A DNA stretch of 24,320 nucleotides from a virus. Below the pieces are notes generated by a model. That model saw only the letters and a program-made list of their open reading frames with translations. It was not told the DNA's origin and made no database searches. Below are positions 13,763-19,738 of the stretch, piece by piece; position 1 is the stretch's first letter, and every line of letters begins with the position of its first letter. Location of the stretch: IMG/VR virus record IMGVR_UViG_3300027974_000154, positions 1 to 24,320 of that record; one strand, given 5' to 3'. A program made the translations under genes and the position numbers.

Positions 13763-16700
13763 TTACTCTTCCCCTTCAGCAGCCTTACGCACCCGCTCTT
13801 TGAGTTTCGGGTCGATCTGTACCCCATAGATAGCCTGCTGCTCCCTGCGATCACGTCCTTTGACTGAAGCAATGATGTCCTTGGGTTTGATCGCCACCTC
13901 GGGGAACGCCATATTGAACGCTGCAATGCGCTCCTGCACACCCATCAGGGCATCCACATCCCCAGCATCCGCTGCGGTCTCATACTGATCAAACAGGCGG
14001 CGTTTACGGTCACGCACGAACGTCTCCATCTCCTTCATGTAACCGCGTTTCTCGTAAATCTCAGTCAGCTTGGTCGGCGCAAACCCACCCAACTGGAACA
14101 TTGCGTTCATGATATTGATGTCGTCCGTGATTGGATCACCCTTCAAAGTCGTGGCACCCTCCACCCCAAACCGCATGGCCTTCAAACCGTTACGCAGTGC
14201 GGCGGGAGCACCGGCTTCAATCCCACGATACCAATACCCGTCGTCGATCATCTGCGCAGCCCGGTTCATGTTGGTCAGGATGCTGAACGGTGCCCCCAAG
14301 AATATCTGCTCGATGTAGTAGCGCAGTGCCCCAAGTTCGGCTTTACTGCGGGAGTCGTCCCGGATCAGCAGGTCACCAAAACCCGTACGTTGTGCGACCT
14401 CAAGACCGGTTAGGTAGTTGGTCGGGCCCTTGAACGTGAACTCACCCAGCGCGTTGCGCATGGTGTTGCGGAAGTCCGGATACTCATCGTCATCCCCGAA
14501 CGCCGACTGAAACACGTTGTAGAGGAACTCCCCCACCCCCACGAACGGCAGGCCCTGTGCACCGGCAAACGCAAACGTCATGGCATACGTCCCCAGCAAC
14601 TGCTTCCGGGCGATGTTCTTGGCTAACTCCCGTTCTTGCGGTGACAGACTGCTATCCCCTTTGATCGCTACATACGCCATACGCGCAGTACGGAACATCA
14701 TCAGTTGAGCGAAGCGTTTGAAGATCAACACAACACGACCCAGTGGGTGCTGGAATATCGGCCCCGCAGTCTCCATCATGCCGCTGCCGTGGGACTTGGT
14801 GATCATGTCGACGGCTTCATTCACGGCTTCGGTCTCAGACAAACCTTTTTGTTTTGCCAGCGTGTAGGCGGCGATTGCGGTGATCTCACGGTTTGCCATC
14901 TCTGAATGCTGGTAGGCGAACGTCATGGCGATACTGGCGGCGCGTTTGACCTTGCTGTCCGGAGACGACGGCTGTGACCGCATGTCCAGAATCTCCTGCG
15001 AGATCGAGATGTTGATCTGACCACGGCGCTGCAGTTCGTCATACAGGCCACGCAACGGGCTGTCTTTTGGCAGGGTGTTCAGAGGTGACAGGTAACCAAA
15101 TTTCTTGAAGTTGTCCCCGGCGTTTTTATATACTGATTTGCCATACGCCTTGTATGCACCCATCAGGGCCGCAGTCGCTTTACCCGCGCCATACTTACTT
15201 GCCATCATGGGGTAGGCGATCATCGGGGTCTGCGTCAAGTTGATCAGAGCGGTGGATACGTTGGCCCCGAGGAAGTACGAGAACGTCAGCCAGTTGATGT
15301 TCGACGCCAGCTTGTTGATCGTCGGATTCAGCATTGTGGTGAGGCGCGACCCCGGCTCCGCCGAAATTTGTGTGGCTACTTCGTCGGCTAGTGGGTCAAA
15401 CCCACGCGGGTCTTTGCTGGATATGTCCGCCAACTCATTACGGCCCAGCGCAGCGGTCTCTTCAATCCGACGGTTATACAGACGTGATGCCGTCTGTGAA
15501 ATGAGCTTCGGGGCGGTAGCAGTGTAGCTACGCAGCACGTCTTTCTCAAAACCAGCACGACCTTCCCGCTTGATCATATTCATGATTGCCGACTGCTGCG
15601 GATTCAACCGAAGCAGGGCTTTATATACATCGTTCACCACATCATCAGCCACACCGTTGTCGCGCATAGCCCGCAGAGTACGTTGGATCATGGGGTCAGA
15701 CGGCGGGGTGCGGCCAGCGATAACCTCATCCAGATTCTTGTATTGCTTGAAATCCTTGCTGTTACGGTCGATCTTGTTCTCAGCGATAAACCGATTGCGC
15801 TGCTCCGGGGTTTCAAACGCCATAACAATCTGCTCACCGTTCTTCTCAAACCGCATCCAGTAATCGCCAAACCGCATCAGCGGGAAGTAGGGCTTGATCT
15901 TGCTCTCGATACCTGCCTTGATCTCATCGATCTCATTCTTGGGCAGCACGGCCAAGTCTTTCTCCAGCGCGGCGATGTAGTCCTTGTACAGCTTCTCGTA
16001 GTGCTCCTTGATCTCGGTGTAGGACTTCTTCAGGTCATCCGGCAGCGCCTTATAACGCGCCAACAGGTCCGGGCCTTGTTTGGCGGCGGGGTTACCACTG
16101 TTCTTCGGGTCGGCGGGATCAAACCGGGCCAACGTAGCGTCGTACACCACTTCGGTGAACTTGTCGTATTCTTTTTTGAGCGCCGTCGTCTGGCTGTATT
16201 TGTTCACCACTCGCTGCAATGACTTGGCGGTCTGACCTGCGCGGTCGATCTGGGTGTTCTCATAACCCCGGCGTTCGTTGAGTAGGTCTACAACCCCCCG
16301 CAGTGCAGGTGCCCGGTTGCCATAAATCTCCACCAGATGATTCAGGTCCAACGTCTTCACCGCAGCACCCAGCACGCCACGGCTCATCTTGCCAACGACG
16401 TCGCTCCATGCTCCGGAAAACTTAGGTAGGTTTGTGGAACTATCACCCATCGTGTTGAGCATGTTTCTGTAGGCGGCGGAAGCACCCGATACATCAGCAT
16501 TGAGAAACAGAATGTCCCCGGGCGTTTTGGGGATCGTCTTACCAGCACGGATAATCTTGCCAATAATCTCGTCGATACGGTCCAACGCGGTGTTCGAACT
16601 GCGCGGCGACATACCAAAGAACTTACGCACAGCGTTCACAAACCAGTCATACGCGGTCTTCAACGCACCTTGCGGAATGCGAATGCTGCGCAGCATCTGT

Positions 16701-19700
16701 TGGAACTCAGAGTTGGACTGGGCTTCTGCGGCGAACTCCTGCAAGCTGGTCGCGCCATACTGCCCCTCTATACGCGGACGTATCCGGGTGAACAACTCAT
16801 TCAGTTGACGAGTCAGCGGGTGCATCCGGCTACGCAGAACATGGGAGATCGCGGCATGGGTAGTTTCATGCAGGATGGTGTGTTCGTGCAGTGAGTCCGG
16901 GCTGATCGTGATGGTGTCGGTGGTTGGGTCGTACTGGCCTGCGCCTTCCACCATGCCTACCTTGATTCGTGTGTTGCCGATACGAGCGAGCAGCCGCTGT
17001 GCCACCTGTTTCAACAACGGATTGTTGGTGGACTGAATAATGCCCCGCAGCGTCTTCCGCAGATCACCCGCCTGAACTGCCGCAGCTACATCATCCTGCA
17101 CTTTCACACCGACGGGTTTAGACGGCAGTAGCAGATCATCTTCCGCGTTCTCGTCATCTACTTGCTGCTGTACAGCGCGAGCGTTTTTCCGGTTGGCTTC
17201 ATAGCGTTCTTGGATCGCAGCGGATGCAGCGAGTTTCTGTTTGGCGGCGTCGATATCCTGTTGGGGGACTTCATTGCGCTCCAGAATGCTTCGGGCAGTC
17301 GACACCACGGCCTTGTTCTGATCCCGCATACTGTCCACCAGATACAGGACCGCACTGTTGTATTTGGAGGTCACTTTGGTGGTCTGGATCAACCGTTCGG
17401 CTTCCTGCAGTTCGAAAAGTTCTTCCGCGAAGTTCGTGCGCTCACCGCGCTTGGGTTTCTGTGACGGCGGGGTTAGTGGAGAAGACTGTTGCGTCGTTGC
17501 TCCATCACTTCGTCCAGCATCTCTTTGATCGCCATCCACGTCGGCAGGTCGAGTAACGTCAGCGGCCCCTCCTCCGGTGGTTCGTCCTTGTACAGGCACA
17601 GCCATGCCTGCGCTATCAGCTTCTCGTCCAGCATTGGGTGTCCCTTCAAAGTCAAATGCTCCTTGTACCCGTGGCATTGATTTACGTGGACGGCCACGGA
17701 GCACGGGTTCTGCGGCAGGTTCTTGGGTGGGCTCAGGTTGCACGGCGGGCGCTTGCGTCCCACGACGGCGTTTTTCACGGCCCTGCTGAATAGCCAGAGT
17801 CAGTCCCGGTGTCTTGCGTTCCTGCGCCTGCGCTACCTCCAGTTCGGCGGTCGTCTGCGGTTGTTGCTGCTTGAGCAGGTATTCTTGGCGCGGGGTCAGC
17901 GGCATCCCGGCATCCCGACGTTGCTTGGCGAACTCCAGTTCCTGAACGTCCGTATTTTGGGCGGCGGGCGTCTCACCCAGCACCTGTCCTTGGGTCATGC
18001 GGCCCTTGGTGGCGATCTGTTGCTCACGCGCTTTGTCAATCAGGTTCGACGCTACTTCAGGGTTGAACTTTACGCGACCGCTAATGTCACCCAGCACCCC
18101 TTCAAACTTGTTGAGATCATCGGCTCTGGTCAGGTCGAGCCCACGCAAGGTGTCTCTGGCTTTCTTCGAAGTGCGACTGAACCCAAGACCTGTCAATACG
18201 TCGTCGGTGATCTGCATCCCGACCGGTGTAGGTACTTCGGGAGCAGCGGGATATTGCAGCGGCTCTGGGGTGGGCGCGGGGCGTTCTTGTAGTTGCGGTT
18301 GTACCTCAGCCATCTGCTTCATGGACTGGCGACGGGTCGGCTCTTTCTCTGGATTCGTCGGGTTGATTTGTTTATTGAGTGTATTTATCTGCGCACGAGT
18401 GCTGGCTATGGCGCTCTTGATCTGCTCCTGCTGCTCAATGAACTTTACTTTTTCGCCCGGGGTCTTAGCACGTTGGACTTCCCGATCCAGAATATCCAAT
18501 ACCCGGCGTTGCTCCTCCAACTGGGTTTGCAGGGCCGTAATTTCTTCCGTTGGGTCTTGGTTGAACCTTTCAGCGGTTAGCTTGTCACCACCGGGTGTAT
18601 ATGCAAACAGATCAGGTACGGCGTCCGGTGGCGGGGCCTGTTCACGATCCATCATCTCCTGTTGCGCAGTATTGGGTACGGGCTTACCTTCCGGTCCCAT
18701 ACCGGTGAATACTTCTGACCGGGGGGCGTTCTCCGCCTCCGCCAACAACTGCTTGCGCTGCGTATCTTCTATAGCCGCCCGACGACCCAGTTCCTCTTGC
18801 GCATTACCACGACCTGCACGGGCCGCGCCCACTTGACCCACTGCACCCAACGGACCACCCAGCATCAAGGCACCAGCAGCGGCTTCAGCGTATTCTTTGG
18901 CGGCTTCAGGGTCGTCATAGGGGTTCGTCGCCAGACCCGCCTGCCAACGCTCCAGCACTTGCTGCGACACCTCCTGCGGGATTTCAAAGGCGATACCCTT
19001 CATCACCCCCTTGGCGATCTCCTGCTTATATTTGACCGGGTTGGCAGCGGCGAGCGCGAGTTCTTTCACGGTCTGGTCGGCAACGGCCTTACCCTCAATA
19101 CCCAGCAGCTTACCCAATCCCAAAAACTTGCCGCCCAATAGGTCGAGCGCGGCCTGACCACCACCCGCTACCGTAGCAGGGAGTCGATCTACCGGCTTAC
19201 CTTTATTCTCTTCGACTTGGCGACCGAGGTTGCTGGCGATGTACTGCCCCAGCAAAGTCAACCCATACGCACCCGTGCCGATCAACGCAGCCGGGGCACC
19301 TGCAACCGCAGCGGCACCTGCACCCAACAGACCGGCGGCAGCGGCTGGGGCTTGGAAACCAATCGATTCACCCGACAGTTCACGGAACTTATCCCACGTA
19401 GCGCCTAACGCCCCGCCGATATCCCCAGCCTTCGCACGGGCTCCGATGTCACTGAACTGCGTGCGGCGATAGGCGTCCTGTGCCTCTTTCTGAACTTGCT
19501 GCATCTGCTGCGCAGCTTGCTCATCTCCCGGGTTTACCATGAGTTTGGCAGCGGGGGCCAAGGACTTGAGTGTCGACGACGCACCGGTACCCAGCGCTTT
19601 AAAGAAACCCGGCTCTTCCGGGATAGGGTCGAACTTCGGCTCGGCGGCGTATTTCTGGTATCGGCGGATAAGTTCCGATTGTGTAATATCGTCCGGCACC

Positions 19701-19738
19701 CCGGAGATGACGGTACCATCTGGCATTCTTACATCCAT
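13763..19738 (-). CDS. Giant polyvalent virion protein with HETTH metallopeptidase motif and LPD38-like C-terminus
   Basis: 1,991 residues from ATG 19738 (CTAGGAG just upstream). The N-terminus MPDGTVISGVPDDITQSEL is a segment common on phage internal/ejected proteins. A small-residue hydrophobic stretch (about 127-170) follows, then long Gln/Glu/Arg coiled-coil and Pro-rich linkers. HETTH (957-961; LHETTHAAISHV) with downstream Glu in EFAAEAQSN (about 1001-1005) is a gluzincin-like zinc peptidase site. The C-terminal region around NREITAIAAYTLAKQKG (about 1616) resembles LPD38 of large polyvalent proteins. Such proteins are packaged and enter the host with DNA, where the peptidase could cut host or virion proteins. 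No lysozyme or transglycosylase motif seen. An out-of-frame ORF is nested at residues about 702-755. Confidence 0.88.
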   Translation of the reverse strand: MDVRMPDGTVISGVPDDITQSELIRRYQKYAAEPKFDPIPEEPGFFKALGTGASSTLKSLAPAAKLMVNPGDEQAAQQMQQVQKEAQDAYRRTQFSDIGARAKAGDIGGALGATWDKFRELSGESIGFQAPAAAAGLLGAGAAAVAGAPAALIGTGAYGLTLLGQYIASNLGRQVEENKGKPVDRLPATVAGGGQAALDLLGGKFLGLGKLLGIEGKAVADQTVKELALAAANPVKYKQEIAKGVMKGIAFEIPQEVSQQVLERWQAGLATNPYDDPEAAKEYAEAAAGALMLGGPLGAVGQVGAARAGRGNAQEELGRRAAIEDTQRKQLLAEAENAPRSEVFTGMGPEGKPVPNTAQQEMMDREQAPPPDAVPDLFAYTPGGDKLTAERFNQDPTEEITALQTQLEEQRRVLDILDREVQRAKTPGEKVKFIEQQEQIKSAIASTRAQINTLNKQINPTNPEKEPTRRQSMKQMAEVQPQLQERPAPTPEPLQYPAAPEVPTPVGMQITDDVLTGLGFSRTSKKARDTLRGLDLTRADDLNKFEGVLGDISGRVKFNPEVASNLIDKAREQQIATKGRMTQGQVLGETPAAQNTDVQELEFAKQRRDAGMPLTPRQEYLLKQQQPQTTAELEVAQAQERKTPGLTLAIQQGREKRRRGTQAPAVQPEPTQEPAAEPVLRGRPRKSMPRVQGAFDFEGTPNAGREADSAGMAVPVQGRTTGGGAADVTRPADVDGDQRDAGRSDGATTQQSSPLTPPSQKPKRGERTNFAEELFELQEAERLIQTTKVTSKYNSAVLYLVDSMRDQNKAVVSTARSILERNEVPQQDIDAAKQKLAASAAIQERYEANRKNARAVQQQVDDENAEDDLLLPSKPVGVKVQDDVAAAVQAGDLRKTLRGIIQSTNNPLLKQVAQRLLARIGNTRIKVGMVEGAGQYDPTTDTITISPDSLHEHTILHETTHAAISHVLRSRMHPLTRQLNELFTRIRPRIEGQYGATSLQEFAAEAQSNSEFQQMLRSIRIPQGALKTAYDWFVNAVRKFFGMSPRSSNTALDRIDEIIGKIIRAGKTIPKTPGDILFLNADVSGASAAYRNMLNTMGDSSTNLPKFSGAWSDVVGKMSRGVLGAAVKTLDLNHLVEIYGNRAPALRGVVDLLNERRGYENTQIDRAGQTAKSLQRVVNKYSQTTALKKEYDKFTEVVYDATLARFDPADPKNSGNPAAKQGPDLLARYKALPDDLKKSYTEIKEHYEKLYKDYIAALEKDLAVLPKNEIDEIKAGIESKIKPYFPLMRFGDYWMRFEKNGEQIVMAFETPEQRNRFIAENKIDRNSKDFKQYKNLDEVIAGRTPPSDPMIQRTLRAMRDNGVADDVVNDVYKALLRLNPQQSAIMNMIKREGRAGFEKDVLRSYTATAPKLISQTASRLYNRRIEETAALGRNELADISSKDPRGFDPLADEVATQISAEPGSRLTTMLNPTINKLASNINWLTFSYFLGANVSTALINLTQTPMIAYPMMASKYGAGKATAALMGAYKAYGKSVYKNAGDNFKKFGYLSPLNTLPKDSPLRGLYDELQRRGQINISISQEILDMRSQPSSPDSKVKRAASIAMTFAYQHSEMANREITAIAAYTLAKQKGLSETEAVNEAVDMITKSHGSGMMETAGPIFQHPLGRVVLIFKRFAQLMMFRTARMAYVAIKGDSSLSPQERELAKNIARKQLLGTYAMTFAFAGAQGLPFVGVGEFLYNVFQSAFGDDDEYPDFRNTMRNALGEFTFKGPTNYLTGLEVAQRTGFGDLLIRDDSRSKAELGALRYYIEQIFLGAPFSILTNMNRAAQMIDDGYWYRGIEAGAPAALRNGLKAMRFGVEGATTLKGDPITDDINIMNAMFQLGGFAPTKLTEIYEKRGYMKEMETFVRDRKRRLFDQYETAADAGDVDALMGVQERIAAFNMAFPEVAIKPKDIIASVKGRDRREQQAIYGVQIDPKLKERVRKAAEGEE
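17473..17634 (-). CDS. Candidate overlapping gene nested in the polyvalent protein (53 aa)
   Basis: ATG 17634 to TAA 17473, one frame off the polyvalent gene and on the same strand. The peptide begins MLDEKLIAQAWLCLYKDEPP, has an LDLPTWMAIKEMLDE helix and ends in a polar, partly basic tail (QRRNSLLH). This is protein-like, with aromatic and aliphatic residues, where the host frame is Gly/Asp/Arg/Thr-rich linker. GAAGGG sits 8 nt upstream of the ATG. By hand count 42 of 53 codons end in G or C (79%), against 17 of 55 (31%) in the overlapped host frame; the gene's first 66 codons give about 64%. So codon bias follows the nested frame here. Two helices are likely; function unknown. Confidence 0.6.
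   Translation of the reverse strand: MLDEKLIAQAWLCLYKDEPPEEGPLTLLDLPTWMAIKEMLDEVMEQRRNSLLH

What the first reader, a model, noticed from the sequence alone, without database searches (positions are those of the whole stretch)
17473..17634. Overprinted gene hidden in the linker of the polyvalent protein
A 53-codon ORF lies one frame off the 1,991-aa gene on the same strand, with a good Shine-Dalgarno sequence (GAAGGG, 8 nt). Its translation is protein-like (LIAQAWLCLY, LPTWMAIKEML), while the host frame there is Gly/Asp/Arg/Thr linker. Third-position G+C by my count is 42/53 in the nested frame versus 17/55 in the host frame, and about 64% in the host gene's start. The codon bias therefore switches frame locally, as expected if selection acts on the nested protein. 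I do not know of a described nested gene in this family.
Basis: partly seen in the sequence, partly recalled or inferred. Interest (0 to 1): 0.8.

Follow-up and report, generated by a model that had tools for sequence, protein, structure and literature searches.

The report
Overprinted phage gene inside polyvalent gene
A real, previously unannotated small phage protein appears to be encoded in a shifted reading frame inside the flexible linker of a giant phage protein; the same hidden gene occurs in dozens of uncultivated phages, where selection protects the hidden protein and hardly the linker it is written over.

Summary
The 53-codon ORF (17634-17473, minus strand) lies one frame off the 1,991-aa polyvalent gene. 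I found homologues in IMG/VR phage contigs: 52 complete distinct sequences. All lie inside a giant ORF in the same +1 relative frame, none stands alone, and all end in [LVI][HQ] plus stop. Host position 3 is the least variable and host position 1 the most variable, the reverse of the upstream flank. Frame-aware omega is 0.13-0.26 (nested) and 1.5-1.7 (host). Nested identity exceeds host identity in 25/25 independent pairs, against 1.4% of 1,059 control windows. A ribosome-binding site is present in 38/39 loci. In six relatives a stop directly precedes the nested start, which excludes a frameshift tail. AlphaFold predicts a helical hairpin. No PHROG, Pfam, PDB, sequenced-phage or bacterial-genome match was found. 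In relatives the same linker carries further overprinted mini-ORFs (n2, n3) with the same selection signature. Presence is patchy: 35 of 61 module-bearing loci found independently of n1. Function is not shown; my best guess is a partner or regulator of the polyvalent protein. Translation has not been measured.

The parts
17473..17634 (-). nested gene n1, 53 aa, +1 frame relative to the host gene (ATG to TAA, stop included)
   Evidence: homologues; selection
17642..17647 (-). Shine-Dalgarno-like GAAGGG, 7 nt before ATG 17634
17647..17664 (-). alternative start region: AAGGAG (17664-17659), 9-nt spacer, TTG 17649-17647
   Evidence: AAGGAG at the same place is the RBS of many relatives and encodes the host's Gln-Gly-Ala there
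13763..19738 (-). host gene: 1,991-aa polyvalent protein
   Evidence: PHROG DarB-like antirestriction E=1e-70, Pfam LPD39 E=7e-12
17135..17812 (-). unconserved linker of the host protein (about residues 643-868) that holds n1
   Evidence: tblastn of the host against L013/L014 breaks off here and resumes at residue 869
16856..16870 (-). HExxH (HETTH) metallopeptidase-like motif of the host, downstream of n1; not present in all n1 hosts
15953..16375 (-). LPD39 domain of the host protein

Best explanation
n1 is a genuine protein-coding gene overprinted on the linker of a phage polyvalent (probably virion-associated, DarB-like) gene. Ribosomes that start at its own Shine-Dalgarno site on the polyvalent mRNA make a separate 53-68-aa acidic helical-hairpin protein. 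That it is a conserved protein under selection in its own frame is shown by comparison; that it starts internally is inferred from conserved RBS/start sites and from stops directly before the start. Function is inferred only. The most likely reading (about 0.4) is a small partner or regulator made together with the polyvalent protein, because over great divergence it has never been found outside that gene. The linker is the tolerant place where it could be written; the host frame there only has to stay open and flexible.
For: 52 complete distinct homologues, all within a host ORF (about 1,600-3,000 aa) in the same +1 frame, host frame open through the whole overlap, none stand-alone. Exactly one copy per record in 20 records searched whole. 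Differences at nested positions 1/2/3 in 18 disjoint pairs: 171/87/271, i.e. host position 3 lowest and host position 1 highest; upstream host flank at host positions 1/2/3: 238/163/514 (chi-square p about 4e-48). Enlarged set: 287/181/399 in 25 pairs, 25/25 in the same sense. Omega nested 0.13-0.26, omega host 1.5-1.7. Signal confined to codons 0-60 of n1, apart from n2/n3 downstream in relatives. Nested identity above host identity in 25/25 pairs, against 1.4% of 1,059 control windows where +1-frame 'shadow' identity beats host identity. RBS of 4 or more matching bases in 38/39 loci against 26% of control positions; 5 or more in 26/39 against 6%. Stop codon directly before the start in six relatives. 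AF2 helical hairpin, pLDDT 78 (window) and 84.5 (L105).
Against: No expression data. The window has no close relative: its nearest are about 57-60% identical in DNA over n1, so no omega can be measured for its own branch; window vs L141 is nearly tied (nested 0.36, host 0.34). Of 61 module-bearing loci found by host homology, 26 lack n1, so it is dispensable or replaceable, which weakens an obligate-partner role. C-terminal modules of the host differ widely, so a partner role for those enzymes is unlikely.
Confidence: 0.9

Rival explanations
1. Real nested gene, but an independent accessory protein (host takeover, anti-defence or lysis timing) that only uses the disordered linker as free space; the linker is an accessory slot.
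For: Patchy presence (35 of 61 module-bearing loci); other overprinted mini-ORFs (n2, n3) share the slot in some lineages; host C-terminal modules swap while n1 stays.
Against: Never found as a stand-alone gene in viral contigs, phage records or prokaryote genomes, which is odd for a freely useful accessory gene.
Confidence: 0.4
2. Chance ORF whose codon bias merely mirrors the composition of a Gly/Ala/Asp/Arg linker.
For: Linker composition does raise G+C at host positions 1 and 2; off-frame peptides of conserved host regions look conserved too.
Against: Reversed substitution pattern, omega and the shadow control; conserved start, RBS and C-terminus across highly divergent hosts.
Confidence: 0.02
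3. The conserved frame is a programmed-frameshift tail of the polyvalent protein rather than a separately initiated protein.
For: Same strand, fixed +1 offset; in some relatives the nested frame is open far upstream (158-229 codons).
Against: Stop directly before the start in six relatives; the conserved block begins at a start codon with RBS; no shared slippery site was noticed, though none was searched for systematically.
Confidence: 0.04
4. n1 is the older gene and the host frame was later extended through it when flanking modules fused, so the linker is the overprinted newcomer.
For: In the window lineage n1 has native codon usage and the host frame does not; the host frame there shows no purifying selection.
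Against: No locus with split flanking genes and a free n1 was found; many module-bearing hosts lack n1; codon usage is not decisive outside the window lineage (22 of 39).
Confidence: 0.3

Closest known systems
Embedded spanin gene Rz1 in Rz (phage lambda; PMC6139136)
   Same: Small gene wholly inside a larger phage gene, same strand, +1 frame, commonly missed by gene callers
   Different: Rz1 is an outer-membrane lipoprotein with signal peptide and lipobox; n1 has neither and lies in a polyvalent gene, not a lysis gene. The window's phage has a separate endolysin gene
Intragenic antitoxins RpnS in Rpn nucleases (PMC10327210)
   Same: Separate small product from an internal start within a conflict-related gene
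   Different: RpnS is in frame and equals the C-terminus of the large protein; n1 is out of frame and unrelated in sequence
Polyvalent proteins of phages (Iyer et al. 2017, PMC5512222)
   Same: The host gene belongs to this class: giant, multidomain, LPD39, DarB-like, beside late genes
   Different: A search of that paper's text found no word beginning 'overlap', and 'nested' only for a protein hairpin; no nested gene is described
De novo embedded lysis genes of ssRNA phages (PMC7693330)
   Same: Small overprinted phage genes that annotation misses
   Different: Those are lysis genes in 3-4-gene RNA genomes; n1 is an acidic helical hairpin in a dsDNA phage

Membership tests
Overprinted (same-strand nested) gene | ORF wholly inside another gene in a different frame, both frames open | tested here: met
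Overprinted (same-strand nested) gene | Purifying selection on the nested frame beyond what the host frame explains | tested here: met
   (family-wide; on the window's own branch not measurable)
Overprinted (same-strand nested) gene | Own start codon and ribosome-binding site | tested here: met
   38/39 loci
Overprinted (same-strand nested) gene | Translated product detected | not testable with these tools
   no ribosome profiling or proteomics for these uncultivated phages
Embedded o-spanin (Rz1-like) | Signal peptide with lipobox cysteine | tested here: not met
   sequence inspection of n1 alignments: no hydrophobic N-terminus, no conserved cysteine
In-frame intragenic product (RpnS-like) | Small product is in frame with the large one | tested here: not met
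   offset +1 in every locus
Polyvalent protein (host gene) | Very large multidomain phage protein with known polyvalent domains | tested here: met
   LPD39, DarB-like PHROG, HExxH motif
Polyvalent protein (host gene) | Packaged in the virion and delivered to the cell | not testable with these tools
   lies next to a PHROG 'DNA ejection protein' gene; inference only
Known phage small-protein family | Match to a PHROG, Pfam or PDB family | tested here: not met
   no significant fold match

The most novel reading that the evidence does not exclude
The linker of this polyvalent gene family is a hidden gene slot: it carries an overprinted mini-operon (n1, with n2 or n3 in some lineages), each with its own start, all in the same +1 frame, whose products work with or alongside the injected polyvalent protein.
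Probability: 0.55. Interest if true: 0.85.

Novelty: new variant of a known kind. Interest (0 to 1): 0.74.

Why it matters
It is a new protein family, absent from the annotated families searched, conserved across a wide group of uncultivated phages and recognisable only by frame-specific selection. The host frame over it is nearly free of amino-acid constraint, so a giant virion protein's 'disordered linker' is there to be written over. If giant phage genes commonly hide such genes, phage gene catalogues are incomplete in a systematic way that can now be tested by the same codon-position scan.

Tried and rejected
tblastn of n1 (window, L013, L081, L016 and L105 versions) against 50,697 phage records: nothing credible. 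The host gene itself by blastn: none; by tblastn only relatives below 60% identity; the five of these read in full or part (L006-L010) gave no n1. Genome scan (84,980 species) with the L081-type profile: no relative. Off-frame blastp between hosts was rejected as evidence, since conserved host regions cast equally 'conserved' shadows in other frames; replaced by the shadow control. The idea that n1 protects against the host's metallopeptidase was dropped, because several n1 hosts lack HExxH. An early impression that n1 always accompanies the N-terminal module (69/70) was a retrieval artefact: with host-found loci it is 35/61. Foldseek found nothing significant. An alignment of all n1 was too diverse to scan with; the n2 peptide was too short to scan. 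Synonymous-codon usage did not decide which frame is older outside the window lineage.

Full report
WHAT IS THERE. The ORF reported is real: ATG 17634 to TAA 17473, minus strand, 53 aa, one base out of frame with the 1,991-aa gene 19738-13763 and starting at its codon 702. Its RBS GAAGGG is 7 nt upstream; an AAGGAG with a TTG start 15 nt further upstream is an alternative. The base composition claim is right: 0.65/0.30/0.78 G+C by position in the nested frame and 0.76/0.66/0.31 in the host frame, which is the lowest host GC3 anywhere in the gene. Composition alone would not prove much, since a Gly/Ala/Asp/Arg linker forces G+C at host positions 1 and 2. Synonymous-codon scores point the same way (nested +0.07, host -0.39 against +0.16 elsewhere).

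WHERE IT SITS. The window is part of a 69-kb phage contig in IMG/VR with terminase, portal, major head protein, tail fibre and endolysin genes. The host gene is a polyvalent protein: DarB-like PHROG, LPD39, an HExxH motif. It lies beside a gene matching a PHROG named 'DNA ejection protein'. Known phages carry only distant relatives (below 30% identity).

RELATIVES. An alignment of the host C-terminus with database phages found 80 IMG/VR loci, two of them (besides the window's own contig) about 60% identical to the host. In these the host linker cannot be aligned, yet the nested peptide is 43% and 37% identical over its whole length. Scans with nested and host profiles raised the set to 53 distinct sequences, 52 of them complete. 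In every one the nested ORF is inside a giant ORF, the relative frame is the same, and the host frame stays open across it. All 52 end in Leu/Val/Ile-His/Gln-stop. A profile made without the window finds the window ORF at E = 7e-11; one without the window's lineage at E = 0.001, still ranked first.

SELECTION. In 18 disjoint pairs the differences fall 171/87/271 on nested positions 1/2/3. In host terms position 3 is the most conserved and position 1 the least, the opposite of the same genes upstream (238/163/514 for host positions 1/2/3). Counting each change by its effect in both frames gives omega 0.13-0.26 for the nested protein and 1.5-1.7 for the host frame. The effect is confined to codons 0-60 of n1 apart from the second signals described below. 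With the enlarged set, 25 of 25 pairs show it. As a control for the 'shadow' that a conserved host casts on other frames, 1,059 windows elsewhere in the same genes were compared: the +1 frame beats the host frame in 1.4%. An RBS is present in 38 of 39 loci (control 26%; at five or more bases 26 of 39 against 6%). In six relatives a nested-frame stop directly precedes the start, so there the product is not a frameshift tail.

LIMITS. The window's nearest relatives are only about 57-60% identical in DNA over n1; the window's own case therefore rests on membership of the family. Nested versus host identity is 0.42/0.24, 0.35/0.25 and 0.36/0.34 against L013, L014 and L141. No expression data exist. 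The loci are uncultivated virus contigs. Pair counts are not full phylogenetic likelihoods.

WHAT THE PROTEIN IS. It is acidic (mean net charge about -5) with invariant or nearly invariant Ala, Leu and Trp positions. AlphaFold gives two helices joined by a proline-containing loop, pLDDT 78 for the window and 84.5 for a relative. No PHROG, Pfam, PDB sequence or fold match is significant, no database phage has it, and the one bacterial-genome scan found none.

A SECOND AND THIRD NESTED ORF IN RELATIVES. After n1, 15 distinct sequences carry a 20-30-aa lysine-rich ORF (n2, [M/V/L]-[A/S]-L-[K/R]-P-L-K-P-S-K-Q...) in the same +1 frame, starting with GTG, ATG or TTG, mostly behind a GGA-type RBS, at variable distance (a few to about 180 codons) from n1. 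Its substitutions again peak at nested position 3 (23/21/51 in seven disjoint pairs). The L105 group instead has a 49-aa Leu-rich ORF (n3), nested identity 36/49 against host 20/49 between L105 and its most distant member L115. Neither was found in the window. The linker thus looks like a slot for overprinted small genes.

HOW IT MOST LIKELY WORKS. Inferred: internal initiation on the polyvalent mRNA makes n1 along with the giant protein. Because n1 was never found outside this gene despite wide divergence, and is present once per record, I favour a partner or regulator of the polyvalent protein (about 0.4). Against that, the enzymatic C-termini differ, and n1 is missing from 26 of 61 module-bearing hosts found independently, which suits an optional accessory protein about equally well.

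COMPARISON. It works like other overprinted phage genes such as Rz1 within Rz (PMC6139136) but is not a spanin: no signal, no lipobox. It resembles the in-frame intragenic RpnS products (PMC10327210) only in being a gene within a gene. The polyvalent-protein survey (PMC5512222) does not mention nested genes. The kind, overprinting, is known; the family, its host gene and the multi-ORF slot appear to be new.

Noticed in passing
L081 (n2 start about 105 codons after the n1 stop), L092, L103, L096, L116, L119, L088, L205 and others: Second overprinted mini-ORF n2 (20-30 aa, Lys-rich, e.g. MALKPLKPSKQKRKNKKHPPPQ in L103), same +1 frame, mostly with a GGA-type RBS; nested position 3 most variable.
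   Followed up: partly
L105, L106, L108, L113, L115, just after n1 (69 codons after in L108): Third overprinted ORF n3, 49 aa, Leu-rich N-terminus with basic tail (MRLLLLPLLLILLLLLYLLRDERLLLSRLLKLPLPKRWKHRILLRLIKL); nested frame better conserved than the host frame.
   Followed up: partly
hosts of n1, residues after the linker: C-terminal modules of the polyvalent gene are swapped between lineages (different or no HExxH peptidase) while n1 stays.
   Followed up: partly
L171, L158, L157, L169, L177, L160, L162, L164, L199 and others: Hosts with the same N-terminal module but no n1 anywhere in the record; what fills the linker there, and whether n1 was lost or gained, is open.
   Followed up: partly
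window 17659-17664: The AAGGAG Shine-Dalgarno sequence of the nested gene seems to fix the host residues Gln-Gly-Ala, a host 'motif' seen in several lineages just before n1.
   Followed up: no
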